Assembly: GCA_948567375.1 (NCBI GenBank)
Contig: OX419756.1
Span: 75,778,333 to 75,842,332, forward strand
Origin: Lunularia cruciata
Taxonomy: Eukaryota; Streptophyta; Marchantiopsida; Lunulariales; Lunulariaceae
DNA length: 64,000 bases
Direction of reading: 5' to 3'
Positions 22,661-64,000 of this stretch are shown here, piece by piece. The number at the start of each line of letters is the position of its first letter. Position 1 is the first letter of the stretch. The notes under the pieces were generated by a model. That model did no database searches. It saw only the letters and a list, made by a program, of their open reading frames with translations, and was not told the origin of the DNA. Made by a program: the position numbers and the translations under genes.

Positions 22661-22699
22661 GTTCTATGTCATCCTTGATGCCATATCACAATGATCTCA

Positions 22700-41784: not shown

Positions 41785-44700
41785 TCACCGCACTTGGGTA
41801 GGAGAGCAAAGCAAACCAGAAGCATCTGAGCCAACAGTTGCAAGGTCACAGACTGGACAAACCTTTCCTTTAACCAGAGGGACAAATCGTGCTGCGCAGA
41901 AAGGGCATGATACATCCTCGCTGCCGCGGTAGATTGGAGTGAAAGTCTGCCCACAAACAACGAATGGATTGCGGGGATCGTAGTTTATTTGAAGCTCATC
42001 CCGTGGGGTCCTCTCACAGACTTGTAGAACTTGTCTTGCTTTTTGAGAAATTGGTGGCGTAAGATTCATCTCCAAAAGCCGTCGGGCGAATGAGGCAGCC
42101 GTGTTGTAGTTTTTAAACTTGAAGCATATGCCCATAGCAGAGTGGAGACTGAGCTTCAAGTGCGTAGCTTGAAGGTTGCAATGAGTGAAATAAGCAGCAA
42201 GCTCAGCCTGGCGCACGGGATTGTCCCTCTCTTCTTTCCTTTTCAATTCGATCCTCAAAGCGAGAACATACTCCTTCGCGATTCCAAGTAGCTCCTTCAC
42301 CTCATCGACTTCCTTGCGAGATTCAACCACCACTAGTGGGATTGTCTGCAAGATGGTGAGGAATACTCTCAAGGCCTCTGTGAACTTCCCTTCTGTGGTA
42401 GTCTTGTAGGCGATTTTTAACTTCTCTTCCAGGGTGGAGAGTTTGTAGATCAGAGCAGGTGGACCACGGACATTCGGACTCGAGCTTTCTGTCCAACCTC
42501 TCTCCAACGCTAAAGGTACAACGGGGACTGAGACCAGCGCAGGTAGTGAGGTATGACTTGCCATATGAAGCTCCAAAAATGCACTCTTTAAAGGTGCAAA
42601 ATTGCTGATGCCTAACTGGCGGTTCAGCAGTCGCATAGCAGTGTCGAATGCCCCTGCTGCCGCATGTTCAGCTGCAAGCGAAGACCTCTGCACCCAGATT
42701 TGACTGACGGCCATTCCAGGAGTAGGAGCAACGAAGTATGCAGATTCAACGGTGGCAGACAAGTCCGCAGCACCAACATCTGGTGGAAGCTCCAAATCTT
42801 CCATATCCCACCCTGCTTCATCATCTTCTGGTCCTCTGGGTTCTTCATCATCGCCATGTGCAATCCCACCGTTTTGTCCCTCAGAGACATCTGGTATGAC
42901 CAGCTCCTCTCCCCATGCTCCAGGAGTGCCTTCATCCTCTACCTCTGTCGGCATGCCAGCATCGGCTGCAAATGCTCCTTCAAAGAACCCTTTGCTTACC
43001 AGAAGAAGTGGCCAATTGTTATCTCGGAGAATGGGCGTGGGGGGCAAAAGAAGCCCAGACTCCTCAACTGAAGAAAGATCAGGCACACCCTCCTCACCCA
43101 AAGATCCAGCAATTCTCTCAGCCACATCATCGAGGCCATGAACGGCTGCAGTAACATACGCCAATGGCAGATGACCAGATTCTTCCAGAATCTTTACCCG
43201 CTCCTGAACGTCACCCAGATAGAGGGCATTGTGGAAGCGTCCCATCACGTCGTTACGCATTTCCGCAATCTTCAGCATTTTGGAGAGTTTATCCAAATTT
43301 CCGGTGATCAGATACAGAAATGAAAGCCTTTCGAAGTTCTTCGTTTTCTGGTAGGAATACTCCACAATCTCGTGATTGCCTTGGCGTAGTGCCTCCACTC
43401 CAAGTCTGTACCAATAATCTTTCTCGTCTATCTCCTTTGCAGATGCCACTGCCACTTCGATGTTCCCACATTCCACAGCAAGGTTGAACCTTGTTCGCTC
43501 ATCCTTCACAAAGTGCAAGGCAACCTCTGGAAATCCCTTTTGCTGGAGGTAAGCTATGATGGACTGGCCACAAAGCTGAGATCCGCGGATCATTTGAAGA
43601 ACTTGGTCGTACTTTCTCTGAATCAACGCAAGCTTGAACATGTACTCAGTGGTGTCGATCTGAATAACTCTGTTCTTCCCATCCCTATCCAAGCTGTATA
43701 CGGAGGTACCTTTGACTTTGGTAATGTAAACAGGTACTTCAAGAGTTCTGATGATGCCGCTGTCTCCATTTGGCAGACAGTACTTGATGTGGTTCAGAGT
43801 TGTGTAGATAAACACACCAGAGTCATCCCAGGCTCCGCTCTTAACCCTGATTGTCTCATGAACTGTGCACTTGTGCACCAGTTTCTTCGAGGCGATGATG
43901 ATTGCGTGCTTACTGATCAGAGCAACTAGCTCCATGTCGGAAGACCACACGACATACTTGACGAAAGGAGTGTTCAGCTCACCTAGAGTACTTCTCTGTT
44001 GAAGATCAAAGAGTATCACCTTATCTTCCGAGCGGCAGAGTAGGTTACCGAGATTTGCATAGAAAACAGCATCAGTTGTAGCAAAGGGCAAGTTCACCTT
44101 CTTTGTCACCTCATTGCGAAGATTCTTGATTACAACTTGGTTGTGATTCCTGTCCAAGACGGCAAATCGATTTCGCGCCACAAAGACAGCGGAAGCTCCC
44201 AACCCTCGCTTCGCTTCCTGTGCGTTCTCACTGCGACCAGTAGTATCCTTGGGAATAGTGTACAGTTCATATGACCCTCCATCTACATCTGAACAGATAA
44301 GAACAGCATTCTCAGCCGGGTTGTAAGACATAGATCTGGGGCCCTGGTTCATGCCTGTGGATCCCGTTCTTCTAATGGAGATAAGAGGATTGTCTCTAGC
44401 GCTATCAAAATCATACGTTCGGAGGTACCGCTCTTTGACAAAGTAAAGGGTGCTTCCATGAACGGCATAAGACGGCCTTTCACGCTCCAGTTTGAACACA
44501 ATCATACCACTATCATGCCCTGCTGCTAGAAGATTCATATCAGGGTGAGCTGCCAATATCCAGAAACGATCATGCTCTCTGCGAAAAGTTTGGACCCCTG
44601 TCCGCTTGGACATGTCCCATACCCGAATACTCTTATCCTCTGAGTTCGAGACTATGATATCCTGCCGAGCATGGAACATGACACAGGATACATTGTTCAC

Positions 44701-46126
44701 GTGACCCCTAAGAGTGTCAACCTCCCATGCCTTGGTGTCTGCACAGAACCAATCGTATTGCGGTCAAGCACAACTCTTCAAAGCAGATTCTGAATCTAAC
44801 GAGATGATAAGTGCTAGAAATTTCTATCTTCATTCAAATTTACTTCTGGGACGCTAGATACCTAAGCGACTTTGATGTTTTATATCGTACCGTTCATCCG
44901 CCAAAGCTTGACCTGACGATCATCAGCACCGGAAACTATGAGAGGCAAAGTTGGATGGAATGCAGCCCAGTTTACACCCCTGTCGTGACCCTCAAGGACA
45001 TACTTCACCACTGCATCACCTCCACCAAAGAGATCTGTGTTCATCTGTGTCAACCGCAAAATATCCTCAGCAGGAGCAACGGTCTTCTTCCTTAGGGCTC
45101 CAATGTCCCATATTCTTACGGTCTGATCCAAAGAAGCTGAAACGACTAAGTCTTCCTTGATGTGGAACGATGCACACATGACGTAATGGTTGTGACCTGT
45201 AAGAACAGAAATGCAAGTTCTCGACTGCCAATTCCAGATCCGGATGGTTTGATCATCACTAGCACTAACAATCCATGGGTACTCTTGATGGAACTGCACT
45301 GTCCGAATGTAATCCAGATGCCCCAAGAGAGTGAACAAACATCTCCGCAACTTGTAATTCCACACTTTAATCTTATAGTCGTCACCTGCATTGAGATCAA
45401 GGAACGAAACTCAGACCGAGTATCAAACTCTTCGATCTAGTGTCATCAAAATGTTGAACCTCGCAAAGATCCAATATCGCAAAGGTAATACAATTAGTCA
45501 CCCAAAGAGGCACAAAAGCAACTGGTAAGAACCTCGACTCAAAGAATCGAGAGCCACGTCCGCATGGAGGAGTAGCAAAGAAACGCTCTGCCTACATTCC
45601 GTCAAATGCGGTACAAAATCTATGATCTACAACCTCCAGATAGAACTTCTTTAAATCGCCACAGAATAATGTACTGCTTGCAATATCGTGTTTATGGGAC
45701 AATATGATCAACAAAAATAAATAAACAAGGTAGGTAGAGCATGAGAGATGCTCCGCGACAGATCTGAACAGAATCAACCTAGGCTATACCGACGGAGTCC
45801 ATCACACATTGCAAGTGGCACAAACAAAAGTGTCTGGCTGAGCTCAGATCCACTTCGCAAGGGTACCCTAGGCTTCTCAAACATCAAAAACCAATGGAAA
45901 GTGATGAGAGACAAGTACCTCCGGAGACGAAAAGAGGCTGTGACTTGTGGAAATGGACACCACGAACGGGACCATCATGCTCGTCAAATCGGTCAATCAG
46001 AGTTCCCATACGGTAGTCCCATAATTGGATCACTCCGCTGTGCAAACTGGCCAAGATCCAGGGCCGCCTCGGGTGGAAGCTCAGCCCTTTCACCCGATTA
46101 CTCTTGGTCTCGAACTTGGTCAGCAT
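41785..46126 (-). CDS. COPA: Coatomer subunit alpha (alpha-COP)
   Basis: Three minus-strand exons, 46126-45919, 45385-44891 and 44738-41785, join in phase at GT-AG introns of 533 and 152 bp and give 1218 residues, the usual plant length. The start [20 protein letters not shown] is the conserved alpha-COP N-terminus. Residues 1 to about 320 form the first WD40 propeller ([62 protein letters not shown]), followed by a second propeller, an alpha-solenoid ([20 protein letters not shown], residues about 700), an acidic linker (about 840-890) and the epsilon-COP-binding C-terminal domain with Cys pairs ([15 protein letters not shown]) ending LLCSPTQVR. The protein is a COPI coat subunit that forms the outer cage with beta'- and epsilon-COP and binds KKXX cargo for Golgi-to-ER transport. 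No broken residue or frame was seen, so this gene looks functional. Confidence 0.97.
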
Positions 46127-47955: not shown

Positions 47956-49780
47956 TTAGTATTAAAATCAAGACCTTACATCATTTTCTGATTTATAATA
48001 ATATTTGATTCTTTTCTTGTATGCAAGAATATGAAGATGTGATGTTTCCTTCTATTTCTTGCTGGTGGGTAAATAATAAGGATTGATTTGTTTTTTCATA
48101 ATTCTATTTAAAAGTTTTATCTTTGTTCCTTCTTATTGTTTTTCTTTAACATATTATTTTAAATATTTTCTCACTTTTGGAATAAAAATAATAAAGTAAA
48201 AATAATATTCAATCTCTCAATAAAAGAATTTAATAAAGCTTAAGTAGAGGTACATCTTAGTCACAAACCAGATATACTAAGGGACCTTGATGACTGTTTT
48301 TCATTTTCAAACTTTCCCTATTTTCGTGAATTTAGGTTAATGTCTTTGTTGACTTCAAATTTGTAAATTCAATGAAGTTTTGTTTTTTTTTTATAATTAT
48401 CAAGATATATATATATATATATATATTGCTCAATTGCACCTTGATGTTACTTTGCATTTAGCATATTCCTTCATCAATATCATACAAATATCAAATAAAT
48501 AATTATGGAGCAATGGTTATCTTTTAAATACTTGTTTGATTTTAAGCATTTCATGAAATAAAGTACAAATAATATATCTTTCAAAAATATCACCTTTTAA
48601 ATTAAAAAATGGTGGATAATTAGTTTTCAATCTTTGGAAGTCTAATAATCCAAAGGTTTATCTCATATCTAACAATACTTAGACAAGGATTTCATCATAA
48701 CTATATCACTGCCTACACATAAGGGATCATTCTAGTATATTATTCTTAAAAGAATTTTAATAATCCAACTCTACTCCCCAACACTATATAGTTATCTCAT
48801 TATGAAAATATTATTTCTGAATAAATTATTTTATTATTATTATTGATTAAATTATGTCATTATCACATCATTATAAGAAGGTCAACCAAGACTACCAATC
48901 CAAAGTCATTCATATTTTTATATTTAGTGGTATTTATATTTAAAGCATCTCTTGAATATGGTTCAAAGGCGTATTAAAACATAGATATACTAGTGATGAA
49001 TATGATAAGTTCTATTATAAAAGTAGTATATAACCAATTATGCTAAAATACGAGCCTAATTGTTACTAATTTTTATTATGTAGTAATGATGACGACCTTA
49101 TTTATATAATTGATATCTATATCAATTGTAGATAACTCCTTCTATTGATTATGATAGTTTTGTTTTTTATTATGGTATGTAGAAAGTCATGTGTTGATAT
49201 TTAAAGCTTTACTATATAGAGGTTCCTAAATATCTAATACTACAATGTCAATATATTAGAACCATATAACGGTAGTGAGTTTATACTTTCTCTTTGCTTT
49301 CACTTGTTCCGCCTATTGTCACCAATAACTTTTGAAATTCTAATCACAACCATTTTCAACTTAATGGAGTTCTTGACTCCTCTAGTTCAAATTCTCTTGT
49401 AAACAACTTTTGGTTTTCTTCACAAAGTCTTGCTATGTAGTACTAAAACTCCTTTGCTTGATGCTCCAAAGCATTACTACCAACCTTTTTATTTGAAGAA
49501 CAAGTCTATATCTCTATCAAATAAGGGGTCCTTTTAGATCTCACAATTTGTAGTAAGTAATTCATCTACATTTTTATCTTGAAGTTAGATTCTTCATTTA
49601 CTACTAATTGCATGAAATTCAAGATGTACTTCTTAATAGCTTTTTCATATTTTTAAAATGCAATGAAATGAATATTCTATTCAACTGTTATCAAACCTTT
49701 CCAATATTGTGAGAGTGTGTGTTGTGATGGCAAGTTACAAGTCGCCTTTTCTCCTAGTGTAGTTGTCTCAATTAGAGTTA
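47956..49780. other. AT-rich stretch, nothing recognised
   Basis: Long AT-rich sequence with a short AT run near 48404-48426 and no long frame. It lies directly before the methyltransferase element, whose 5' LTR I could not identify. Confidence 0.45.
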
Positions 49781-49794
49781 TATTAGTGCGTAGT

Positions 49795-49905
49795 GTTCCG
49801 TTGGTATTGGCACTTGGTGGTGCTTAGTTGGTGTTGGTACTTGGTGGTGTTCGGTTGGTGGTGTTGGTTCTTGGTGGGGTACTTGCAGTTGGGGTTGCGG
49901 TTGGT
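49795..49905. repeat. Degenerate about 30-bp GT-rich tandem repeat
   Basis: The word CTTGGTGGTG recurs at about 30-base spacing (near 49813, 49843 and, degenerate, 49873) with GTTGGTGTTGGTA between. The minus-strand frame through it gives a Pro/Thr/His repeat (PTEHHQVPTPTKHHQ). Possibly the leader or start of the retroelement gag region. Confidence 0.55.
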
Positions 49906-50024
49906 GGTTAATGGTTACTTTGTCACGACATAGTTCTTTGGGAATTTTAGAGAAGATAGCCTTGCAATATGCAATGGGTTTACTTGAAGTGGTGCTTGAT
50001 ATCAGCATGTATCTCAGGTCCCAA

Positions 50025-50950
50025 TGAGAGAGGAGATTGACTCTAAGTTGGAGTTTGACACAAGAGTTGATTCAATTGAGAGTGCCCTTGGTGTGTCTAC
50101 ACCGTTGTTGTGGGACATGGAAAAGATTTATGGGGCCTCCAAAGGCCCTAGGCATTATTTTGGTACAATGGGTACCATTGAGTTGGATGACTTCATCTAG
50201 GAGTTTGATAGTTGGTATGATTTGCAACAGATGCGAAACCCAACTTTGTTCACATCCTTCATGGCATGGAAGGGCTTGTTTCAACATTTGGAGGGTCCAC
50301 TGATGGATGACTATCATGAGTTCAAGAGAGTTCACTTAGAGGAGATTGAGTTATGGAGACAATATTGGTCTCCAAACTATGTCTCCATCACTTTAGACTC
50401 GGTTGCTAGGGGTAGATCGGCTATATCCATGAGTTCCAGCTAAGTAACATTGGTGGAGCTAGTGGAGGTGCACTAGCTGGAGATAGTGCTACTACGAGTG
50501 GAGGTACTGCTACATGAGGTGGTGTAGTACCGGGTTTTAACCCCATGGTGGACTTCTTCTAGTGCTTGAGGGAGAATTACCAAGAGTGCGGACAGACAAG
50601 CTAAGGAGCTTGCAGGAGTTCCAGCAGAAGGCTGAAGAGAGCCTACACAAGGCATACACTTGCATGAGGTGGCTGACTAGTTTCACTCAAGGAGTTAATG
50701 AGACCTAGGCAGTCCAATTTTGGTATGGGATATTAGACAAGGAGTTGCAACGTACAATTTGTGATGCTACGTTGTTACATGCTACTTTGCCTACTTTGGC
50801 GGTGGTCTTTGGTTTGGCTGAGCGTATTGAGCTCAACATGGTGGAGGAGAGAGTGGTGTCATATGGATTTGGTAAGGAGACCTCATCCACAATTGTGATT
50901 TCTTCTAGAGTGCAACAGAGTGCACCATGCCCAATTGGTTTTTGACAACA
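50025..50950 (+). pseudogene. Gag, methyltransferase element copy 1
   Basis: The open stretch 50025-50443 reads gag-type blocks such as ELDDFI (then a TAG), EFDSWYDLQQMR and LEGPLMDDYHEFKRVHLEEI. It resumes at about 50605 with LQEFQQKAEESLHKAYTCM, then AVQFWYGILDKELQ and LAERIELNM. Helical and Trp-containing blocks in this order are normal for gypsy capsid/nucleocapsid precursors. At least two in-frame TAG codons break it. Confidence 0.65.
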
Positions 50951-51053
50951 AGGTGGACAGCCCAAATCCTATGGAGCAAGTAGAGGGCCTACTAGAGCTA
51001 GACCCCTACCTTCATTTTTAGGTCAGCAGCAGCCAATGAATGATGGTGTTACT

Positions 51054-51188
51054 TGTTGGACTTGTGGTGGACCTCACCATAGGAGAGAGTGTACTTGGGG
51101 CAGCAAACCTGATACCTCTGGTGCATCACAACCAACATAGAGGTAGTGTGCGCATTGCCACAGATTTGGTCACACTAGTGACCAGTGC
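51054..51188 (+). pseudogene. Two CCHC zinc knuckles of gag, copy 1
   Basis: First knuckle 51054-51092 (CWTCGGPHHRREC). Second 51147-51188 (CAHCHRFGHTSDQC, canonical C-X2-C-X4-H-X4-C). Two TAG codons lie just before the second knuckle (51138 and 51144) and are shared with copy 2, so they were probably already in the common ancestor of both copies or are readthrough-prone sites. Confidence 0.8.
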
Positions 51189-51239
51189 TTTGACCTACAC
51201 CCAGAGTTACGAAGTGGTAGGGCTACTATGGCAGGTACT

Positions 51240-52800
51240 AGAGGAGCTCTAGGTCATGGAGGACTAAGGTGGTAGAGGTGGTGGTAGAGGATCCACACCT
51301 AGTAGAGGTGCAGTACCTGCCCTTACTTTTGATACAACCATGGTTGCTCCCATTGAGAAATTAGAGCAGAGATTGGCTAGCATGGTCATAGCTCAGAGGA
51401 GATCAGGTTTGGGTGTTTAGGCTTCCACCTCATATGTTGGTGATAGAGATGCTTTGGACTTCATGTGCAGAGCAGCATAGGTGGATGCATCTACATTAGT
51501 GACTAGGAGTGCAGTAGGTGCTCTAGAGCCTAGAGTAGCATCAATGGAGTTGGACCCACAAAGAGGAGAGGTTGGGAGATAGGTCAGACTTCCCAATCTT
51601 TCATGCTCTTTGAGACCTTACAGACATCATCTATGGCTCCTAGACATCCTAGTGCAAGTGTGGTAGGTGGTGATGGGGTGCATGATGGACTACCTACTAG
51701 TCAGCTACCTGCTACCACACAAACTGAGTCTGGCACAATGGTGGGGACGGCTCTGCTGATTATACGGTATCTTTTATTTTCAACCAGTGACATATGTACA
51801 TTGGAAGTTGACCCAACTCCAATGTTCAGATTGGCTGCCATGCTTTGTGAGAGTTAGGATGATGTGGTTCTTGCTTCTAGAGCAAAGGTGGTGGATAGTG
51901 GAGTTGACTTGGTTGAGGAGCATGGGATCCGCTCAATGACCATGCAGTGACGACTAGATTGGAGGAGTTGCCAACTAGACCGGCCTTTGAGAGAGCACGG
52001 TTCACACTTGGTGTTGTCCTATTGGATAACCAGAGGGGGATTTTTTGTTTGGTGTGACTTTCAGGGAAGGTCTATACACCATAGAGAGTCTTATTAGACT
52101 CTAGTATGTAGCCCCATTGGAGAAGGCTACAATTGTTGGTCTAGGGTTATGGAAGACCAATGTGGAAAGGTGTCTATTTTAGATCCAAACATCTCTAGGA
52201 GGTGGTTTGTCACAATACATCACATGTGGAGAGCTGGTTGTTCAACTTTAGCCTAGTCATCCAACTGATAGCTCTATGGTGAGAGCTCATGCCATTGCAA
52301 CCATAGTTGAGTCGTATGGTGTGTTAGTTGGGAGAGCAATGTTATACCCCATGGGTTTCAATATTGAAAATTGGGAAGAGACAACCTCCTATAGACCAGG
52401 TTGGCAGTCAGGTGAGGGACAAGTATGTCACCTACCGGTATGCTTTAGTAGTAGCAATCTTGGCTCACTATAGTTTGGGACCATGGCAGCATTAGTTTCA
52501 GCTTTTAGTGGTGTTGTTACTTGGCCTAGTGACTTATTGGAGGGGAACACCCATGCAAAGGATAGTCTAGTACCAGAGGAGATTACTTGGATTTGGAGTA
52601 CAAGTCAGATTTTTCCATCCACCTTGGATGTTCTATTGTGGAGTTTAGAGGATGCATTGCAGCAACATGCAGATCAACTGGTGCAGAAGGCTTGGAGTGG
52701 AGCCTTTGTACCACCAAGAGTTGAGTATGAGGATGAGCCTCCAGAGTTGATTAACTTGACACCTTTAGATACCACACTCATTGCTTGGTAGTATCCAATA
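51240..52800 (+). pseudogene. Unassigned linker between gag and methyltransferase
   Basis: About 1.5 kb conserved with copy 2 (58200-59770). The readable blocks are IEKLEQRLASM (51350), a Gly/Arg-rich stretch, VRAHAIATIVESYGVLVGRA (52279-52338), WEETTSYRPGWQSGEGQ (52373) and PPELINLTPLDTTLIAW (52739-52788). A retropepsin would be expected here; the candidate VDSGADLVEGHG is visible only in copy 2 (near 58840). I do not recognise the remaining part, which may be an N-terminal extension of the methyltransferase. Confidence 0.5.
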
Positions 52801-54034
52801 GAGGGAGTATGTCTATTGGAGTTTTTTGGTAGGATTAGCATTGGACTAGTTGTGGTATTACATGCAAGTATACAAGTACAAAGGTACTTGTATGTGGAGA
52901 GAGATGAGACTACTAGGCGAGTCTCTCTCCATCATGTGGAAAACTTGGGCTATCGATATCTTGAGTTATTGCCAATGTTAGCAATCAAGGGTTACTAGAA
53001 GGCCCTACTAGTAAACATTTCTTTGTTGGGGGTGCATGATGTGGAGCAACATGGGCCTGTTCATTTGGTGATTTTTGGATGGCCATGTCAAGGATATACG
53101 TGTGTTGGCCAAGTTTTGGGTCTTCAAGATCCCCATTCTAGTGTGTTTTGGGAGATGTTACGGATACTACAACATCTTTAGGTTCATCAGACTGTTTCTC
53201 CAACTTACATTTTGGAGAACGTCCATTTGATGTGTGATTCTCGCACCCGAGTGGTGGCAAGTACACATCAAGTCCATTCTTGAATAGGACCAACTGTTTT
53301 GTTAGATGTGGCTAGAGCGGGAGCACGGGCTCATCATCTTTATATTTGGTGGACAAACCTCTTACCTAGAGAGGTTATATAGTGCGCTTATGACAGGATT
53401 CACACGACTAGACCACATCATTGTTGATGACATCTAGGATGTAGGGCGTCAATCTCAAACATTGATAGTGGCTAATAGGTCACCTATGGTAGTGGTGAAC
53501 CTAGTTGGATAGCCTAGAGCTACTTTTCCCACATATATGAGTATCCCAAGCTCTCAAGATTTTTGAGATGGAGGTCATGGACTGGTTTGGGACTCACAAT
53601 TACAATATTTGGTGGAGCCCAACGCCAATGAGAGAGAGCATATGATGGGTTTTCACATCGGTATTACCGTTGTTCCAGCCATGTTAAAGGCATCCAAGCA
53701 TCAAGTGTTAGGTCAGGCTATGGACCTGAACTACTTGACTTGGATTGTGAGCCTTGGCTTGGCAGAGCAGCGTAGGATGCGCTTGATAGGCATCACCACT
53801 CAGACACTTGTGAACCCTATGCTTATTGAGATTATTCAAGCACATGCTAGGGGCGACAAATCAAGTGGACATGGTATTCTTGGGACACATCTAGTAGCTA
53901 CTATGGAGAGTGGTCTACTTGGTGTCCATCTAGGTGAGTGTGAGCTACTTGGATTACACCCTTGGTCCACTTGGGATGTTGTTAGAAGACATGCGGAGCT
54001 TGTAGCTAAAGTGGAGGGAGTATTTCACATGTGA
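52801..54034 (+). pseudogene. C5 cytosine DNA methyltransferase domain, copy 1
   Basis: The motifs of DNA cytosine-C5 methyltransferases occur in unpermuted order. Motif I (AdoMet binding): LLEFFGRISIGLVVVL at 52813-52860. Motif II-like: YLYVERDET near 52890. Motif IV: GWPCQGYT at 53077-53100 with the catalytic Cys codon at 53086-53088. Motif VI: YILENV at 53206-53223. Motif VIII: LLDVARAGARAH followed by IWWTNL, 53299-53364. Motifs IX/X: NEREHMMGF at 53627-53653 and VLGQAMDLN at 53705-53731. The 'A-H....W-NL' form of motif VIII and the position of motifs IX-X resemble DNMT3 more than MET1/CMT, and the order is not that of rearranged DRM. One frame holds I-VIII; a shift follows before IX. In-frame stops: TAG 52996, TAG 53179, TGA 53281. 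The family transfers methyl from AdoMet to cytosine; this copy cannot. Confidence 0.88.
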
Positions 54035-54099
54035 CCTCTAGTGCTTGGGCATGATACTACTAACCCAAGGGCCCAATGTAGCAGCCAGTCAGCACATCT

Positions 54100-54990
54100 T
54101 CCACTCCTACTACAATTACAGAGGACACTTGGGAGCCCAAATCTTGGACCTAAGCTTACAAGAGAGGAAAGGCAAAGAGTTTGGAGGTTCTTGAGGAGCT
54201 ACACAAGTTGTTTTGCCTTCAATATGAAGGATTTGGATGCTCTAAAAGGACATGGTATTTGGATTGAGCTGACTAGCAATACACCAATTTTTAAACATCC
54301 TTATCAATATAGTGGTAAGGAGAGGACATTGATTTAGAGTCGGAGTAGAGACCTTTTTGAGGTTGGTTTGGTGGAGATTTCACATGGAGAGTATGCATCA
54401 GCTACAATGATTCCAACCAAGAAGGATATGCATGGCAACTAAACAGATAGGTGGATGTGTGGAGATTACCGTCCTATCAACCGATAGGCTAGGACTGATC
54501 GATATGCCATGCCTACACCGGAGGAGATCTTTGATGCGATTGGGCATGCAAGGGTCTTCAATACTTTGGATCTTCAAGCAAGATATCATCAGTTGCTGAT
54601 TAGGAGGAGGATAAGTCCAAGATAGCATTTTGTGCTATTGATCCTCACAGTAAGGATGTGTTATATTAGTGGAGGTTCTTACCATTTGGGTTAAAGAATT
54701 GTCTTGCTGAGTTCCAAATGGTCATGAATAGGCCTAGCTGGATTGGATTTTGCTTGGTGCTATATTGATGACATTTTGGTCTATAATACTACTGTGGAGG
54801 AGCATGAGAGACAATTGTTGGGGATGTTTGAGAGGTTGAGATCTCATGGACTCAAATTCCATCCTGGGAACTATAGGTTCTTCCATGAATAATTTAGTAT
54901 TTGGGTCACAATATCTACCCCGGAGGACTTGGTGTTTAGCAGACCAAGGTGGAAGCTATTTCATGTATTCCTTGACCTAAGGATGTGAGC
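54100..54990 (+). pseudogene. Reverse transcriptase, copy 1
   Basis: Gypsy RT blocks in order: an entry block (TREERQRVWRFLRSYTSCFA, about 54160), CGDYRPINR at about 54457, AMPTPEEIFDAIGHARVF at about 54509, TLDLQARYHQL at about 54565, and YIDDILVYN at 54761-54787 with both catalytic Asp residues. Downstream is the thumb region (HGLKFHPGNYRFF). TAG/TAA codons and frame shifts break it near 54338, 54439, 54484 and 54621. Confidence 0.85.
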
Positions 54991-55119
54991 AGAGTGTGAG
55001 TATTCCTTGGGCTGGTGAAATTCTATTGCTGCTATGTTAGAGGATTTAGTACCATTGCCAAGGCCTTGAGAAAGCTGACCAAGCTTACATAGGAGTGGTG
55101 TTGGGGAGATGAGCAGGAG

Positions 55120-55560
55120 AGAGCTTTGGTTGAGCTCAAGGAAAGGTTGACATCTTTGAGGAGACCGATCGAAGGACAACATTTCATGTTCACACTAATT
55201 GGAGTATGTTGGGGCTTGGAGTAGTGCTCACCCAACATGATGATGAGAGGAAGGAGTTTGTGGTGGCCTATGCTATTGTTCCAACAATTCAACGGAGGCA
55301 AAGTATAGTTCATATGAGGGAGAGTGCTTGGCAAGGATTTGAGCAATAGTACATTTATGATGTTACCTATTTGGTGACCCCTTTACTCTCATCACTGATC
55401 ATCAGCCACTAAAGTGGTTGATGGAGTCCAACAAGCTTTCAAGGAAGCTTGCACGAAAGGCTCTAATTTTATAGGAGTATGATTTCATGATTATTCATAG
55501 ACTTGGAGTGGTAAACCATGATGTAGATGGGTTGAGTAGAAACCCATGTCTCAGCCAGCA
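55120..55560 (+). pseudogene. RNase H, copy 1
   Basis: The block ITDHQPLKWLM at 55391-55423 holds the conserved TDH, followed by KLARKAL and, in the frame starting 55487, HRLGVVNHDVDGLSRNPC, the usual end of gypsy RNase H. The first part (about 55180-55330) is shifted and broken. Confidence 0.75.
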
Positions 55561-55773
55561 TGACCAGACCAAAGCATGTTGGCATGGTAAGACAGATGGG
55601 GAGATGGTGCTAGGTTGGCATGCATCTACCTTTCTTTGTATATTTGTTAAGACTTTGGTGATAGCCCTCTCAATGCATACAAGAGGAGTTATTGAGGTCA
55701 TAGATCCAAAGAGTGAAGATATTGGTATAGTTCAATGAGACATTCATGATGATATCTAAGTGATGGATTATCT

Positions 55774-56920
55774 TTGCATGGTATTGTGGGTGGTACGATT
55801 GTGGCCAAAGAGAGAGACCATGTTCTTCAGCAAGCCATACGGTTCAAATTGGAGGGCAGACACTTTTTGCATGTATGGGAGGATGGTAAAGTGAGAGTAG
55901 TACCACTTCTACCTCAAAGACTACAGTTGGTCCTTCATACTCATGAGGAGCTAGGACATTTTGGAGTAAAGCATACATATAGCTTACTCTAGAGTCATTA
56001 TTGGTAGCACGGTATGCAGACTGATATACAACAATTTTTTGCTAAATGTGTGGTTTGTGCGGAGTTAGAGCATAATTCAATGCTCTTATGCCATAGTTGC
56101 ACCCATTACCTATCATGGGATTGGGTTACCGCTGGAGTTTGGACTTTGCTAGACCTTTATTGTTGATTATGAGACATCATTGGTATGTTTTGGTGATGGT
56201 GGAGCACTTCTCCAAGTGGATTGAGTTGGTGGCACTTCCTAACAAGTCTAGTGAAGGGACGACTTATTTGTTCCTAGATTGGGTTCTAAGCTATTTTGAT
56301 GCACTAGTTGAGGTTTTGACTGATCAGGGTATAGAGTTCTCGGGGAAGAGTTTCAGGTCTTGTGTGACAAGGCTTTGATTGATCATTGTACTACCTCCCA
56401 AGATCACCTTGAGGTAGATGGCTTAGAAAAGAGAGTGGTTAAGACAATGAAGAGATGATTGCGGAAGTATGGTTTGCAGAGAGGTATCTCCAATTACCTT
56501 GGTTGGCCATGGGCTATTGGTTCAGCCGCCAAGCCCCTTTAGCATCCTTCTCTCCTTACTTTCTACTCTCCTTACTTGTAGCCATTTGTCGAGATGCTAC
56601 TATAGTATTGGACTTGGATGATCCAGATGTACAAGTGAGCGCATGTTCTCAACAGGTAGAGATCTTTCAGAGAGTAATGCCAATGGCCTTTGAGAACTTG
56701 GAAATTGCTCAACATAGAGATACCTTACGTTATGCTACTATTTGAGCAAGAGGTTATAGGCCCTCAATCCGTTGATTTCATCCAAGTGACTATGTACATC
56801 TACAGCAGACAACACCAACAACACTTGATATTTTGATAGGCCACACTACCTTGAGAGTGCGTGAGGTTTTTCCATTTGGAGTCCTTGTGTTGGAGGGACG
56901 TGATGGTGTTTTTTGGAAGG
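55774..56920 (+). pseudogene. Integrase, copy 1
   Basis: Zinc-binding HHCC: His codons at 55942 and 55957 and CVVC at 56047-56058. Catalytic core: WSLDF with Asp at 56142-56144, FSKWIELVALP block, and VLTDQGIEFSGKSF with Asp at 56322-56324. The frame ends with a stop after SCVTRL (56376). A C-terminal block with TLRVREVFPFGVLVLEGRDG (about 56845) joins the PHD finger in one frame. The Glu of DDE lies in a broken stretch and was not fixed. Confidence 0.8.
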
Positions 56921-57009
56921 ATCATGTGCACAATTGTGTGCCATGCCACCTCCCAAAAATTGATGGTATTATGGACACAAGCTTGGCACTTATAAGGGCA
57001 AGCTTGAGG

Positions 57010-57143
57010 TGTATGTTATGTGGCTCTTGTGGTGGAGTTGCTACTATGTTAGTGTGTGATAGTTGTTCAAGAGGATGGCATATGGCATGTATGACTCCTC
57101 CCCTCAAGTGGTTCCTTAGGGACAATGGTGATGTTCTAGATGT
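57010..57143 (+). pseudogene. PHD zinc finger after integrase, copy 1
   Basis: Same frame as the integrase C-terminus. C4HC3 pattern: Cys codons 57010 and 57019 (C-M-L-C), 57055 and 57064 (CDSC), His 57079 (RGWH), Cys 57088 and the following MTPPL, the hallmark of PHD fingers. The last Cys pair (TGT at 57132 and 57141, C-S-R-C) is present after a small frame shift, preceded by TGG and TGA where PHD fingers have 'W-C/W'. PHD fingers read the histone H3 tail. Chromoviruses use a chromodomain at this place instead. Confidence 0.85.
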
Positions 57144-57159
57144 ACTTGACCTATAGCTA

Positions 57160-57961
57160 GTTCATCCTTTATATGGTATAGATTGCATATAGACGATTAA
57201 TGATGGGGCTTGATAACATCCAGCCTCTTGATCTTTGCCCATCATAGGGTACACCATATACTTGGAGAAGATGGCTATCTGGAGTTAGAGGGACCTAATT
57301 GCCAACTAGGGAAGCGATTGTGGCACTTTAGAGTCTATGTATGACTTATGTGTGAGTTATATGTCTACAGTGTATGATGTTGACAACAATGTATGTTGCC
57401 TGGCAATGTATATATGCACGACAGTTGTCATGCCATTTGTAGTGTTGCATCTAGATTGCTTGGACACTAGAGTAGTAGTGATAGTAGTTAGAACTATTTT
57501 AGCAACTACCCGTAGACTACTTTCCAATGGTCAGATTTTGTTTTTAGGGTACTGACTTCATGGTGAGACCCACCGTCACTTTGCACCATTTGCACCTTTG
57601 GGTGTGCCATTAGTGTTTCAGACCTAGCTCAACTCTAGGGGTATACTTTTGAAGTGAAACTCTAGAGAGCTCACTTCTTTGATGTTGAGCCTTCGAGTTC
57701 CTAGCTATGGTTGACAAAGGCCGGCGAGCATCACCTAGATTTCCTTAGCTAGAGTTTGAATATAATCAATGCCTAATTATTGACAATTTATAGAGTGATA
57801 GATCAAGTATTGATTTGAGTTGAGTTAATTTGAGTGATGTAAACAAATTGATTATTGTGGCACTTTAGAGTCTATGTATGACATATGCGTGATTTATGTA
57901 TCTATAGTGTATGATGTTGACATTGATGTATGTTGTGTAGCAATGTATATACGCACAACAC
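57160..57961 (+). repeat. 3' part of copy 1 and junction to copy 2
   Basis: No domain seen after the PHD finger. A block of about 105 bases beginning 'tgtggcactttagagtctat' is present twice, at 57314-57420 and 57857-57960. Directly after the second block the sequence jumps to the gag CCHC region of copy 2. The repeated block may be part of the LTR or 3' region of the element. Confidence 0.5.
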
Positions 57962-58009
57962 CTTCTTTTTTGGGTCAACAGTAGCCAATGAGTGATGGTG
58001 TTGCTTGTC

Positions 58010-58160
58010 GGACTTGTGGTGGACCTCACCACAAAAGAGAATGCACTTAGGATAGTGGGCCTAATACCTTTAGTGCATCTTACCCAACATAGAAATAGTG
58101 TGACCATTGTCATAGATTTGGTCACATAATGATCAATGCTTTGACCTACAACTAGAGTTA
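58010..58160 (+). pseudogene. CCHC knuckles of gag, copy 2
   Basis: Reads ACRTCGGPHHKREC at about 58005-58047 and, after two TAG codons at the same places as in copy 1, CDHCHRFGH and a decayed final part. Confidence 0.7.
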
Positions 58161-58173
58161 CAAAGTAGGAGGG

Positions 58174-59770
58174 TTGCTATGGCAGGTGGTAGAGGAGCTC
58201 AAGGTGATGGAGGACAAGGTGGTGCGTAGAGGATCCACACCTGGTAGGGGTGTAGTACCTACCCTTACTTCTGATACAACCATGGCTACTCGGATTGAGA
58301 ATTTTGAGCAAAGATTGGCTAGCATGGCCATAGGTAAGAGGAGATCAAATTTGAGTGTTAAGGCTTCCACTTCATATGCTAGTGTTAGAGATGTCTTGGG
58401 CTTCATGTGTGGAGCAGCACAAGTAGATGCATCTATTGTAGTGACTAGGAATGCAATACGTGCTCCAAAGGCTAGAGGAGGGTCATTGGAGTTGGACCAT
58501 AAAGAGGAGAGGTTGGTAAATAGGTCAAACTTCCCCAATCTTTTACACTCTCTAAGGCATTACAAATGACATCCATGGCTCCTAGACGTACTAGTGCAGG
58601 TGTGGTAGGTGGTGATAGGGTGCATGATAGGCTACCTATTAGTCAGCCACTTGCTACCACACCAATTGAGTCTAACTAGATGTTTGAGGTGGCTCAATTG
58701 ATCATGCACTTTCCATTATTCTCAACCAATAACATGTTTACTTTAGGAGTTGATCTAGCCACAATGTTTTGGTTGGCTGCCACACTTTGTGAGAGTATGG
58801 ATGATGTGGTTCCTAATACTAGTGCAGAGGTGGTTGATAGTGGAGCTGACTTGGTTGAGGGGCATGGGCTTTACTCAGTGACCAATGGTGTATGGTAGGC
58901 AACAACTGCTAGATTGGACAAGTTACCAACTAGACCGGCCTTTGAGCACGCACAATTTACACCTAGAGTGTCCTATTGGATAACCATAAGGGGAGTTTTT
59001 TTTAGGTGGGACCTCTAAGGAAGGTCTATACACCACAAAGACTCTAGTGCATAACTCCTTAGACTTTGGGAAAGGCTCTCGTTGTTGGTCTAGAGTTACA
59101 AAAGACCGATGTTGAGAGGTGTCCATTTCAGATCCAAATATCTCTAAGAGGTGGTTCTACATAGTACATTACATGTAGAGAGCTTGTTGTTAAGATTCAG
59201 TTTGGTCATTTGACCGATAGCTCTATGGTGGGAGCTCAAGCAATTGCAATAATAGCTAAGTCATATGATGTGTTAGTTGGGGAGAAGTGTTATACCCATG
59301 GGTTTTAGTATTTAGTATTAGGAGGAGACAGTCTCCTATAGACCAAGGTGGCAGTCAAGTGAAGGGCAACTATATTGCCTACTAGTACACTTTAGTAGTG
59401 GTATTCTTGGCTCATTATAGTTCAAGACCATGGCAACATCAGTTTTAGCTTTCAGTGGTTCTATTACTTGGCCTGGTGACTTATTGGAGGGGAATGCCCA
59501 TGCAAAGGATACTCCAATACCATAGAAGATTACTTTCATTTGGAATACAAGAGACAAATCCAAGTGAGATTGTTCCATCCACCTTGGATGTTGCATTGTG
59601 GAGTTCAAAGGAGGCATTGCAAGAGCATACAGACCAGTTGGTGCAACAACCTTGCAGTAGAGCCTTTGTACCACCAAGAGACCAATGTGAGGATGAGCCT
59701 CCAGAGTTGATTAATTTGACACCTTTGGATACCACACTTATTGCTTGGCAATGTCCAATAAAGAGAGTAT
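58174..59770 (+). pseudogene. Linker region, copy 2
   Basis: Parallel to 51240-52800. It is the better preserved copy in places: the frame 58174-58569 (131 codons) is open, and 59455-59823 (122 codons) joins the linker to motif I of the methyltransferase. VDSGADLVEGHG at about 58840 could be a retropepsin active site (DSGA), though the rest of a protease fold was not recognised. Confidence 0.55.
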
Positions 59771-60712
59771 GTCTATTGGAGTTGTTTGATGGGATTAACA
59801 TTGGACTAGTTGTGGTACTATAGGCGGGTATACAAGTATAGAGGTACTTGTATGTGGAGATAGATAAAACTGTTAGGCAAGTCTATCTACATCATGTGGC
59901 ACACTTGGCCTATTGGTATCTTGAGTTATTATTGATGTCAATAATCTGAGGTTACTTGAAGACACTACCATCAGACATTTCCTTGTTGGGGGGTAGGATC
60001 GGGAGAGACATGGTCCCATTCATTTGGTGATTTATGGATGGTCATGTCAAGGACATACATGTGTTGGCCAAGGTTTGGGTCTCTAGGATTTAGGGTTTTA
60101 GGTGCATTTTGGGAGATGTTATGGATACTATAACATCTCCAAGTTCATCAATCCATTTCTACAACTTGCATTTTGTAGAACGTTCCTTTGATGGGTGATT
60201 CTCATACCCAATTGGTGGTGAGTATACATCAGGTCCATTCTTGGATAGGACCTGCCATGTTGTTAGATGTAACCAAAGTGGGATCACATGCTCATCATCT
60301 TCATCTTTTGTGGATGAACCTCTTAAAGAGGTTCTACATCATGCTTATGATGGGATTCAACAACTAGTCGATCTTATTGTTAATGACATATTGGATGTTG
60401 GGCATTAGTCTTGGATAGTGGTAGTGGTGGATAGGTCACTTATGGTATTGGTGAACCTAGTTGGACAGCTCCAAGCGACTTTTCCCACACTTATGAGTTT
60501 CCCAAGCTCCCATGCTTTTTGAGAAGGAGGTCTTGGACTTGTTTGGGACTCACAATTACAATAGTTGGTAAAGCTCAATGCCGATGAAAGAGAGTCGGCA
60601 ATGGGTTTTTGCACCAATATTAACATTATTTTACTAGTGTTAGAGACATCATGCATTATGTGTTAGGTCAGGTTATGGACTTGAACTATTTGACTTTGAT
60701 TGTGAGCCTTGG
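59771..60712 (+). pseudogene. C5 methyltransferase domain, copy 2
   Basis: Motif I is LLELFDGINIGLVVVL (59773-59820), in one frame with the preceding linker. Motif IV is GWSCQG at about 60037-60054, where the Pro before the catalytic Cys is Ser (CCA to TCA). The block matching HSWIG (60236-60250) keeps the Trp codon that is TGA in copy 1. Motif X is VLGQVMDLN at about 60660, ending at the solo LTR insertion. It is broken in several frames. Confidence 0.75.
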
Positions 60713-61447
60713 TGTAATACCAAGAGCTAGCCATATGATCTAGATGTGAAATTTGGTTTGGTAACATCTAGAATGATGTTATACATGATGGTCAAAATAG
60801 ATAAGATAGAAGTATCACCAAAAGAGTACTTCTACTAATAGGGCAAAAATCGAAATAGATTTGAGAACCTTAGAACCAATAGCTAGACATGTAATTTAAA
60901 GGTGAGAATTGGTTTGGTAACATTTGGAAGGATGTTACACATGATGGACTAAACAGATCAGAAAGGGGTATCACCAAAAGGGGACTTCTACTAATAGAGT
61001 AGGAACCAAAATATGCCTGAAATCTTTGAAGGCAATTTCGAAGGCCTAAACGGATGAATTAGGCCTAAAAAATGTGCTTACTCCCTCCCCAACTTATGAA
61101 TGGTTGGCCTTTCCTCCCCCTTGCTTTGTCTCATTGAGAGCTTTCCAATGGTACCTTACGTGATTCTGAGATTCCTACAGGAAGATTCCCTAAAAGATTC
61201 TCTCCGGTCAAAGCTTGTTTGACCAACCAGATAGGACCTAGACTAGACATCTCACCCATCCAAGTAAGTAATCCAAGGGTGGAGCTTGCTGACATGTCAC
61301 CTATTTGTGTCCCTAATCCTATGGTGGAGCTTCCTTGGAGGAGATCCTCTTTGTCTATATAATAAAGAGAAGGTGCTCCCTTGGGGCATCAAATGTTTGA
61401 GTGTGCAATCTGTGTTTTCTCTCTTCTCTTGTCCTTGGAGTATTACA
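60713..61447 (+). mobile_element. Solo LTR with 5-bp TSD
   Basis: Begins TGTAATAC and ends GTATTACA, a perfect 8-bp terminal inverted repeat. It is flanked by CTTGG at 60708-60712 and 61448-61452, and it splits sequence that is continuous in copy 1 (near 53750). A TATA-like stretch (CTATATAATAAA) lies at about 61354-61366. An internal tandem-like duplication has period 156 (GGTTTGGTAACAT at 60755 and 60911). Length 735 bp; family not recognised. Confidence 0.9.
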
Positions 61448-61452
61448 CTTGG

Positions 61453-62283
61453 CTTCACAAAGTAGCATAGGATGTGCTTGATAGGCATCCCCACTTGGAC
61501 ACGTGTGAGCTCTATGTCTATCAAGATGATTTAGGCACATGTTGGGGGTGATGGACCAAGTGGACAAGGTATTCTTGAGACACAACCAATGGCTACTAAG
61601 GAGAGTGGTCTACTTGGAGTCCATCAAGGTGAGCGTGGTCTACTTGAATTACACTCTTGGTCTACTTGGGATGCAACTAGAGGATATATGGAGCTTGCAG
61701 CTAGAGTGGAGGGAGTTTTTCACATGGAGGTTGGGACGTCTAATGGTTGGGAGCATGACACTATTGCTCCCAAGGACCCAATGTAGCAGCCAGTCAATAT
61801 GTATTTGGTATTGTGGAAGAGTATGAGAGACATTTGTTGGAGGTATTTGAGATGATCAGCAGGAGGATAAGTCCAAGACAAGATTTTGAGCTATTGATCC
61901 TCATGGCAAGGATGTGTTATATCAATGGAGGTTCTTACCATTTGAAGGCTCTTGCCGAGTTCCAGAGGATCATGGATAGGATACTAGTTGGATTGGATTT
62001 TGCTCGGTGTTATATTGATGACATTTAGGTCTATAACACTATTATGGAGGAGCATGAGAGACATTTGTTGGAGGGGTTTGAGACATAGAGATCTTATGGA
62101 CTTAAATTACATCTTGAGAAGTGTAGATTCTTCCACAAGCAAGTGGAGTATTTAGGTCACACTATCTATCCTAGAGGACTTGGTGTTTAGTAGACCAAGG
62201 TGGATGTTATTGCAAGTATTCCTCGGCCTATGGATGTGAGTAGAGTGCGAGCATTCCTTAGGTTGGCAAAATTTTGCACTTCT
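61453..62283 (+). pseudogene. Methyltransferase 3' end joined to RT, copy 2
   Basis: From 61453 to 61785 it follows copy 1 (53760-54075), including the blocks after motif X. At about 61786 it jumps: the next sequence is an RT-thumb-like block (about 61815-61860) followed by RT from the SPRQDFE region, with YIDDI at about 62012-62026 and a second thumb block to 62180. An internal deletion or rearrangement removed the front of the RT. Confidence 0.65.
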
Positions 62284-64000
62284 TATACTTGGAACATCAG
62301 GGATTGCTTTGCTAATTCTTTTTGGAAATGATGTCCTTGCCTTTGCATAATTAGTTCTTTTGATGAAATTCACCACCAAGCAAGTCCATTTTGATCTTCA
62401 CTTTGTCTTGTAATCTGAGGTCTCCCCTTCATTAGGAACTAAATTTTGGAGCCATGGTTGGGGGGTGTGCGGATTCTACAATTTGTGTCTTCCCCTTGTT
62501 TGTTGGATATAATTCATCCTTAACAAGCAAAGGTGAAAATTGGGACTTATTGCTTGGTCCTTCTTCTTCATTGTTTACCTTGGGTGGCAATATTTATGTG
62601 AAGGACTCCTTGCTCCCCAACTTCATGCTTTGGGTAGTTGTAACAACTCTTTTTGATATGCACCTCTTATATCTATCCTAGTCCTTCCTTGTGATCCAAC
62701 TTGTACATCTTGGTTTTACTCCAACTATCTTTTGATGAAGATTCCACCTCTTGAGGTCATTTTTGCTTCTTGGATGCTTGTGCTTTGGCATGAGCAACAA
62801 GATTCTTTTTCCAAATTGTAATTAACTTGTATGTCTCTACCACTTGTACAAACTTCCTTGTCTGAGCATACACTTCATCTGCATTGTGATATTTGTTAAT
62901 CTCCTTAAGCAAGTTCTGGTCTTTGCTGAAGTAAGTTGGATGGTGCAGGTGGGATAGGAACTTCTCCTTCTCTTTGTCTTTCAAAATGTTTATGTTGATG
63001 TAGAAATGAATGATGAAAGGAGCCATAATGGTGGTGGAACCTTCAATCATATCTTCTAGCAACTTGATGATCCAATCACAAAACATTATGGTCCAACTCA
63101 CTAGCTTCTGCTTGTGTATGAATTGGAAGAAGATAGCCTGGTTGGTTTATATTTGAACAAAACAATTGCATTATCATTTTAATGATGGTTTGATAAGACG
63201 ACTCCTTCATATCTTTGATCTAGTACCTATATATGGATTTCTTTCAACAATTCATTGATCTCCTTGTCAATCATTTGTTGGGATGGAAATTCACATAAAT
63301 ACCCTTGTGTAAATCTATGTGAATCTCCCCAAATGGTGAGCAATCTACACCTAACAACCACTACTAGTGATCCTTCATCCGCATTGTCGGACATCTTTGT
63401 AACAACTTCCCACTCAAGTTCTCTCTATTTGCATGAATTTCTTGTACCATAGCTACATCAGCAAGACCCCAATCCTATAGCATGAAGTCCATTTTCCTTT
63501 TCTTGATGTAGTTGCTTTGAAAATACAATCCCCAGTCATAAATCACGAGAGGCTTGATCAAGATTTCTACTACTTTGCTTCTTCTCAACTCGAATTCCCT
63601 CTTGGGGGTGCATCTTGTCATGACTAAATATTCAAATTCTATTGGCAGTGCAAATCCCTAATATACTCCCATAGATCTACCTCTTTAGTTCAACAAAATT
63701 GATGGGCTCAACAAAATTTGACAATCCAAGTTGGAAATTCCTTGCACAATGTCATAAGAGATGTTGGTCATAAAGAGAGAAATGCAAGAATTGAAAAAAC
63801 AAAAATGCAAAAATATTTGAGTTGCATGGTGATGTTGGTCTTTTTTATAGTCCTAATAAAGGTATCCTTTGTCCATTGCAGCAATTGGTGAAGGATTATG
63901 ATTCTCCAATGCATGCATAAGCCTAGGCATTAAACGGTTGTTGATAGTTCTTTAGCCGCATGCATGTCTTTTTGGATGATCTTGACCTAATAGTGGAAAT
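62284..64000. other. Unrecognised, probably another decayed element
   Basis: The sequence changes sharply after 62283. The best frame is 62757-63101 on the minus strand (114 codons, MSWTIMFCDWIIKLLEDMIE...). It is rich in Trp, His and Lys, ends KAQASKKQK, and has short broken frames on either side. It looks like part of a retroelement gag or a host-gene fragment; I do not recognise it. No RNA gene seen. Confidence 0.35.

What the first reader, a model, noticed from the sequence alone, without database searches (positions are those of the whole stretch)
52801..54034. DNA cytosine methyltransferase inside a Ty3/gypsy retroelement
Seen: motifs I, IV (catalytic PCQ), VI (ENV), VIII, IX and X of C5 methyltransferases, in order, between a CCHC gag and a gypsy RT. 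The same arrangement occurs in a second copy. Known: retroelement-borne DNMTs have, from memory, been reported in charophyte algae and dinoflagellates (de Mendoza and colleagues, 2018). Ordinary plant gypsy elements lack one. Inference: the element may have methylated its own DNA or its insertion sites, either to hide or to limit damage. Motif VIII and the unpermuted order point to a DNMT3-like origin.
Basis: partly seen in the sequence, partly recalled or inferred. Interest (0 to 1): 0.92.

Follow-up and report, generated by a model that had tools for sequence, protein, structure and literature searches.

The report
Liverwort retrotransposon carrying a DNA methyltransferase
A very abundant jumping gene in a liverwort carries its own DNA-methylating enzyme of the kind cells use to silence jumping genes, so a question so far raised mainly for algae, why a genomic parasite would keep such an enzyme, can now be studied in a land plant.

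Summary
The finding is real and larger than described. The window (liverwort; assembly size fits Lunularia cruciata) holds a decayed Ty3/gypsy element (49708-57961) and part of a second (57960-62286) with a C5 DNA methyltransferase (DNMT) between protease and RT. The genome holds many better-preserved copies: all 118 best-scoring matches of the domain cover at least 341 of 342 residues at 96-100% identity. Eleven of 12 copies fetched read gag-protease-DNMT-RT-integrase-PHD. The domain is DNMT3-type by profile and predicted fold, keeps its catalytic residues, and shows dN/dS about 0.4, near protease and RT. Named relatives are from Marchantia, Calypogeia, Riccia and Sphagnum; a 2019 paper calls transposon methylases absent from land plants such as tracheophytes. 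The closest published element is KnitGypsy-Dnmt3 of a charophyte. New variant of a known kind; what the enzyme does for the element is untested.

The parts
49708..57961 (+). Copy 1, decayed element, 5' end (A1 repeat) not found
   Evidence: 85% nt identity over 8355 columns to L011 1218-9526
50117..51017 (+). gag
   Evidence: tblastn of L010 gag, 78-82% in the two best pieces and 49% in a third, stops present
51036..51230 (+). CCHC zinc knuckle region
   Evidence: tblastn 82%, 2 stops; CCHC pattern in L010 ORF1
51998..52440 (+). aspartic protease region
   Evidence: tblastn 76-85%; assigned by position and the D[ST]GA motif of relatives, not by Pfam
52759..53812 (+). DNMT3-type C5 methyltransferase domain, motifs I to X, two frames, 8 stops counted over two overlapping tblastn pieces
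53813..54028 (+). linker between DNMT and UAG
   Evidence: tblastn 74%
54079..54087 (+). UAG CAG CCA, CAR-YYA type readthrough site between ORF1 and ORF2
54143..55507 (+). reverse transcriptase and RNase H
   Evidence: tblastn; PF00078, PF17917, PF17919 in ORF2 of L014
55867..56736 (+). DDE integrase (H2C2 + rve)
   Evidence: tblastn; PF17921, PF00665 in ORF2 of L014
56902..57105 (+). PHD finger at integrase C-terminus
   Evidence: tblastn 85%, no stop; PF00628 E=4.8e-6 here, 2.2e-10 in L014
57317..57423 (+). terminal repeat B1
   Evidence: 88% to L011 B2; 87% to 57854-57960
57426..57835 (+). terminal repeat A2
   Evidence: 78% to L011 A1
57854..57961 (+). terminal repeat B2, right end of copy 1
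   Evidence: 90% to L011 B1
57960..62286 (+). Copy 2, partial element abutting copy 1 (CCHC to RT)
   Evidence: 80% to L011 2481-5247 and further pieces
59719..60716 (+). DNMT domain of copy 2, 9 stops counted over its tblastn pieces
   Evidence: tblastn 67-79%
61784..61792 (+). UAG CAG CCA of copy 2

Best explanation
SHOWN: this is a decayed member of a large family of Ty3/gypsy-type retroelements in a liverwort. The family encodes a Gag-protease-DNMT3-type protein, a UAG in a leaky-type context, then RT-RNaseH-integrase-PHD, between split direct repeats (A1-body-B1-A2-B2) with TG...CA ends and 4-bp target duplications. dN/dS below 1 says the DNMT has been kept by purifying selection. INFERRED: most of the fetched insertions are young, and most ribosomes stop at the UAG, so the DNMT is made in Gag amounts and packaged in the particle, while a minority read through to make RT, integrase and PHD. 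INFERRED: the DNMT methylates the newly made element DNA before it integrates, so that the incoming copy is carried on by host maintenance enzymes, and the PHD finger steers the integrase to chromatin by its histone H3 tail. INFERRED: the cDNA has a canonical LTR (B-GC-A, bounded by polypurine tract and primer site), is joined end to end, and is cut by integrase at the internal B|A junction, which yields the permuted repeats.
Against: No activity, expression, readthrough or packaging was measured. None of the 12 fetched copies has both ORFs open at full length. In yeast the KnitGypsy DNMT gave no methylation, an inconclusive result in the paper's own words (PMC5890265). The decay pattern does not separate self-methylation from host methylation. 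dN/dS was computed only on copies without stops (11 of 25 DNMT hits), with low dS (mean 0.045), which biases it; the integrase ratio of 0.61 is weakly constrained. Several gene models of relatives run from DNMT on into RT (P0018, P0151, P0153, P0155, P0157, P0169), and other relatives are single DNMT-RT proteins, so the UAG is not universal in the wider family. L013 lacks a matching TSD, no A1 was found for L016, L010 keeps only 77 bp of A1. One DNMT row has W at the catalytic Cys, and 16 of 71 have E in place of the motif IV Pro.
Confidence: 0.55

Rival explanations
1. The DNMT acts on the host genome, not on the element's own cDNA: released DNMT, perhaps with the PHD-integrase at the insertion site, methylates target chromatin and sets up a silent neighbourhood that limits damage or hides the insertion.
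For: PHD finger closest by sequence to chains of CHD4, KMT2D, PHF12, MLL3, KDM5B and PHF21A. DNMT and PHD occur together in relatives: 17 of the 23 hits that list PF00665 also list PF00628. DNMT3 enzymes of cells pair a methyltransferase with an H3-reading ADD domain (recalled).
Against: DNMT and PHD are on opposite sides of the UAG, so most DNMT would be made without integrase-PHD (inference). The histone preference of this PHD is not determined.
Confidence: 0.25
2. The DNMT is a nucleic-acid-binding or RNA-methylating part of Gag (packaging, m5C on genomic RNA) rather than a DNA methylase.
For: It sits in the Gag-side ORF. De Mendoza et al. raise RNA methylation for the LINE type.
Against: Best matches are the DNA enzymes DNMT3A/B, while the tRNA enzyme (DNMT2) ranks far below.
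Confidence: 0.12
3. The domain is a passenger: a captured host DNMT3 piece without use to the element, carried along by chance.
For: Retroelements do capture host genes (recalled). The window copies are dead.
Against: dN/dS near that of protease and RT, catalytic residues kept in nearly all of 76 rows from several hosts and two other domain orders, RT and DNMT trees that agree on the main clades.
Confidence: 0.05
4. The in-frame UAG is only an inactivating mutation shared by the amplified lineage, and the true element has one ORF.
For: Some relatives (P0170, P0172, P0195) are predicted as single DNMT-RT proteins, and several Marchantia and one Sphagnum gene model run on into RT.
Against: UAG in 26 of 26 sites, including both old window copies; CAR-YYA after it in 25; nine unnamed relatives (P0158-P0160, P0162-P0167, 48-53% identical) are predicted proteins that end after the DNMT and before RT (contig ends not checked).
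Confidence: 0.08

Closest known systems
KnitGypsy-Dnmt3 of Klebsormidium nitens (de Mendoza et al. 2018, PMC5890265; abstract, sections 9 and 11 and passages read; figures not held)
   Same: Gypsy domain set with an unpermuted Dnmt3-type DNMT; repeats described in the Fig. 4 legend as the same as those of a DIRS element; purifying selection on the DNMT
   Different: Charophyte host; the paper gives it fewer copies than the Symbiodinium elements. Here: land plant; DNMT on the Gag side of a conserved UAG, whereas the paper places it in the Pol ORF; PHD finger; 4-bp TSD shown. KnitGypsy was not among the named hits, so common descent is not shown
SymbioDIRS-Dnmt3 and SymbioLINE-Dnmt of Symbiodinium (same paper)
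   Same: Retroelement-borne C5 DNMT, one of them Dnmt3-like and active on CG in yeast (paper)
   Different: DIRS and LINE elements; a tyrosine recombinase in the former (paper)
DIRS order
   Same: Split direct repeats A1-body-B1-A2-B2
   Different: DDE integrase in place of tyrosine recombinase, TG...CA ends and TSD
Chromoviruses (Ty3/gypsy with chromodomain)
   Same: A chromatin-reader module at the integrase C-terminus
   Different: PHD finger, no chromodomain listed for ORF2
Cellular DNMT3 (animal DNMT3A/B; host exons in L001, L002)
   Same: Catalytic domain type and motif order
   Different: 28-29% identity of own-genome copies to a human DNMT3A fragment; part of a retroelement polyprotein

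Membership tests
C5 cytosine methyltransferase (PF00145) | Profile match and motifs I, IV, VI, VIII, IX, X with catalytic Cys and Glu | tested here: met
DNMT3 type (not DRM) | Closest to DNMT3 among solved enzymes; unpermuted motif order | tested here: met
DNMT3 type (not DRM) | Groups with cellular DNMT3 in a tree with MET1, CMT, DRM and DNMT2 | not tested
   The tree held only three DNMT3-like rows outside the retroelements (35%, 26% and 38% of columns filled), so placement among families rests on profile and fold
Enzyme activity of DNMT3 | De novo methylation of CG DNA | not testable with these tools
   Needs an assay
Ty3/gypsy | Order RT-RNaseH-integrase, DDE integrase | tested here: met
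   (Ty3 Gag-Pol 1.1e-80)
Ty3/gypsy | Complete LTR at both ends | tested here: not met
   A-body-B-A-B in place of two full LTRs: a variant, though TG...CA and 4-bp TSD hold in 8 of 9
DIRS order | Tyrosine recombinase | tested here: not met
   Pfam of ORF1 and ORF2 lists rve and not PF00589
Chromovirus | Chromodomain at the integrase end | tested here: not met
   PHD only (E up to 0.1)
KnitGypsy-Dnmt3 | Sequence kinship with the Klebsormidium element | tested here: inconclusive
   No hit named Klebsormidium; candidates were capped at 7991, and many hits have no host name
UAG readthrough of TMV type | UAG followed by CAR-YYA | tested here: met
   25 of 26; consensus from PMC2754532. Function not tested

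The most novel reading that the evidence does not exclude
A land-plant retroelement lineage is a self-contained chromatin system: a DNMT3-type writer made in Gag amounts ahead of a leaky UAG and carried in the particle, a PHD reader fused to the integrase, and integration from an end-joined DNA intermediate cut at an internal junction, which permutes the LTR. It methylates its own DNA before insertion and has persisted with this strategy in liverworts, mosses and other, unnamed hosts.
Probability: 0.25. Interest if true: 0.88.

Novelty: new variant of a known kind. Interest (0 to 1): 0.73.

Why it matters
Why retroelements keep cytosine methyltransferases is an open question, raised for dinoflagellates and one charophyte (PMC5890265). 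A 2019 opinion paper states that transposon methylases are not present in land plants, such as tracheophytes, and builds a hypothesis on their loss (PMC6338049, passages). Here the type is found in bryophytes, including the model liverwort Marchantia polymorpha, where genetics is practical (recalled). The UAG arrangement makes a testable prediction about dose and packaging, and the PHD finger one about targeting.

Tried and rejected
Chance or frame artefact: rejected. Solitary oddity: rejected. DRM origin (permuted order): the motif order is unpermuted, and DRM chains score below DNMT3. Host DNMT3 gene mistaken for an element: exons similar to human DNMT3A lie elsewhere (L001, L002, L004; no other DNMT family was compared with them). 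A first structure model from 14 sequences had pLDDT 50 and was not used. The best viral fold match (a phage enzyme, TM 0.59 by query) was weaker than DNMT3. DRM, DNMT5 and CMT chains are not among the 50 rows, and no chain named DNMT1 or CMT is among the 54; neither absence is evidence against kinship. A second methyltransferase-like tail in relatives gave only PF02086 at E=0.011 for one of three pieces, below the family cut-off: left open. Pfam named only PF00145 in ORF1, so gag and protease there rest on the CCHC pattern, the D[ST]GA motif of relatives and position (L010 itself reads DFGA). Rfam and tRNA scans of the window gave nothing. Copy number stays unknown: the lists hold only the best-scored candidates, and 13,787 first-look candidates are unconfirmed; host genes are among the 123. 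A genome-wide count of the UAG site was asked nine times and never answered; eleven other requests of that tool also did not complete. The DNMT tree is a quick one with long branches meeting, and rooting on short host rows is weak. Absence from print: searches listed no title or abstract start on bryophyte DNMT retroelements, in an open-access library without preprints and without most subscription journals, and the listings were capped; of 20 papers holding the title phrase of de Mendoza et al. (19 listed) I opened three (PMC5890265, PMC6338049, PMC12344493) and saw the others as listings only. Searches on PHD-bearing gypsy elements, split repeats and readthrough were seen as listings, apart from PMC2754532, PMC6317226 and PMC9289625 (passages).

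Full report
OBSERVATION. The window carries two decayed elements in tandem. Three-frame translation shows motifs I, IV, VI, VIII, IX and X in order at 52759-53812, and Pfam finds PF00145 at E=4.3e-7 in the decayed copy. Copy 1 spans 49708-57961 and copy 2 spans 57960-62286 with gaps. Copy 1 lacks its 5' end. Copy 2 starts at the zinc knuckle and has a 735-bp interruption. The right end of copy 1 abuts the interior of copy 2, as if copy 1 had jumped into it (inference; the left part of copy 2 was not found).

HOST. The coatomer alpha gene at 41785-45365 is 91% identical to that of Marchantia polymorpha, with the next named relative in the list, Diphasiastrum (a lycophyte), at 78%. The assembly has 565,766,749 bases. 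Lunularia cruciata is given as 565.6 Mbp in PMC12885004 (passages) and 580-581 Mb in PMC9985172, which also reports bursts of Ty3/Gypsy elements there (passages). The host is therefore a liverwort, probably Lunularia (inference).

THE FAMILY. In the same genome 123 PF00145 matches were scored, host genes among them, and 118 of 118 scored matches of a stop-free domain cover 341 or 342 of its 342 residues at 96-100% identity, 74 of them without a stop. Stops in the other 44 were 41 TAG, 14 TGA and 0 TAA (counted); one-step C-to-T or G-to-A routes in this domain number 28, 12 and 1, all single substitutions 65, 49 and 26, so the stops look like deamination. Both lists hold only the best candidates, so copy number is not known. 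Of 12 copies fetched, 11 show gag-CCHC-protease-DNMT-RT-integrase-PHD in order, and the twelfth, L017, lacks gag and CCHC. None of the 12 has both ORFs open at full length.

ANATOMY. ORF1 (1428 codons open in L010, likely start at Met 99 by comparison with Marchantia P0149) holds gag, a CCHC zinc knuckle, the protease region and the DNMT; Pfam names only the DNMT there, the others rest on motifs, position and relatives. ORF2 (1037 codons, L014) holds RVT_1, RNase H, H2C2, rve and, at its very end, a PHD finger at E=2.2e-10. They are in one frame, separated by one UAG. The site was sought in 26 loci and the window; 24 loci (not L042, L050) and both window copies gave it. UAG stands in 26 of 26, CAGCCA follows in 23, and 25 fit CAR-YYA. 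CAR YYA 3' of UAG is the consensus found essential for readthrough in TMV (PMC2754532, passages). Relatives P0149, P0150, P0158-P0160 and P0162-P0167 are predicted proteins that end after the DNMT and before RT; six other gene models (P0018, P0151, P0153, P0155, P0157, P0169) run on into RT. The DNMT is thus, here, on the Gag side, in contrast to the Pol position reported for Klebsormidium.

TERMINI. A repeat A of about 450 bp and a repeat B of about 107 bp are arranged A1-body-B1-A2-B2 (ten copies with flanks). The outer ends are TGTCACGCC and ACGCACGACA. The flanking 4 bp match in 8 of 9 testable copies (about 5e-19 by chance at 1 in 256 each); L013 does not match, and the left end of L016 was not found. 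In L019 the match is at the middle of three B ends. A1 of L010 is cut to 77 bp. The A2|B2 joint is exact in 10 of 10, and equals the meeting of the A end next to the putative primer site with the B start next to a purine-rich tract; B1 and A2 are joined by two bases, mostly GC. This is what end-to-end joining of a canonical cDNA (LTR = B-GC-A), followed by integrase cutting at the inner B|A junction, would give. The model is inference. A1 and A2 are 97.3-99.1% identical in seven copies and 88.2% in L013, so most of these insertions look young.

SELECTION AND DECAY. Pairwise dN/dS (ratio of means) is 0.40 for the DNMT (55 pairs of 11 copies, out of 25 hits), 0.41 protease (91 pairs), 0.36 RT (3 pairs), 0.27 gag (6 pairs), 0.61 integrase (10 pairs). 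Only copies without stops and nearly full length were used, and dS is low, so these are rough. Window copy 1 against L011: C to T at 169 of 479 CG, 272 of 838 CHG and 210 of 2835 CHH sites. This is the mark expected of CG and CHG methylation, and host enzymes suffice to explain it.

RELATIVES. The two searches gave 27 and 52 hits, some in both. Named hosts are Marchantia polymorpha, Calypogeia fissa, Riccia sorocarpa and three Sphagnum species; the rest are unnamed. Three domain orders occur: I, gag-PR-DNMT, with RT-RH-IN-PHD after it in this genome; II, DNMT-RT-RH-IN in one protein; III, RT-RH-DNMT-IN-PHD. Order III is one side of a branch in the DNMT tree (22 rows, support 99) and in the RT tree (19 rows, 100/100); order I is so in the RT tree (3 rows, 100/100) and, apart from the fragment P0027, in the DNMT tree (40 rows, 99). 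The DNMT seems to have stayed with this gypsy lineage for long and to have moved at least once within the polyprotein (inference). Of the 23 hits that list an integrase core (PF00665), 17 also list a PHD finger.

PRIOR KNOWLEDGE. De Mendoza et al. 2018 (abstract, sections 9 and 11 and passages) report KnitGypsy-Dnmt3 in a charophyte, with repeats like DIRS and gypsy domains, and active SymbioDIRS DNMTs. PMC6338049 (passages) states that transposon methylases are not present in land plants, such as tracheophytes; bryophytes are land plants but not tracheophytes. PMC12344493 (passages) speaks of streptophytes, citing the same work. PMC6317226 (passages) describes a moss and a lycophyte gypsy clade, and the word methyltransferase does not occur in its main text. 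In the passages seen of PMC9516144, PMC10952607, PMC13182070, PMC12885004, PMC6453930 and PMC9289625 no DNMT-bearing retroelement is mentioned. I found no report of DNMT-bearing gypsy elements in bryophytes.

VERDICT. A real and abundant land-plant variant of a known but rare kind, with three structural features that make its purpose testable. Its function is not shown.

Noticed in passing
window 21448-23252: Another decayed gypsy RT and integrase, 24-36% identical to this element; the DNMT query gave no match there.
   Followed up: no
P0171, P0175, P0189, P0192, C-termini: Relatives with the order RT-RH-DNMT-IN-PHD carry a further tail with DPW..TG ... SPWF-like motifs (seen by eye), as in amino-methyltransferases (recalled); Pfam gives only PF02086 at E=0.011 for P0175 among three tails tested.
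   Followed up: partly
window 41785-45365 (-): Host coatomer alpha gene, 91% identical to Marchantia polymorpha.
   Followed up: yes
L001, L002, L004: Exons similar to human DNMT3A in the same genome, separate from the elements.
   Followed up: partly
window 60713-61447: 735-bp interruption of copy 2 with a 156-bp tandem repeat.
   Followed up: no
L009-L019, just inside A1: Putative primer site CATCAGAGAAGTGAAGTC shares ATCAGAG with the usual initiator-tRNA site (recalled) but not its first bases.
   Followed up: no
window 57960: Right end of copy 1 abuts the interior of copy 2, which suggests nesting; the left part of copy 2 was not found.
   Followed up: partly
window 37124-37323: Run of 200 N, an assembly gap.
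   Followed up: no
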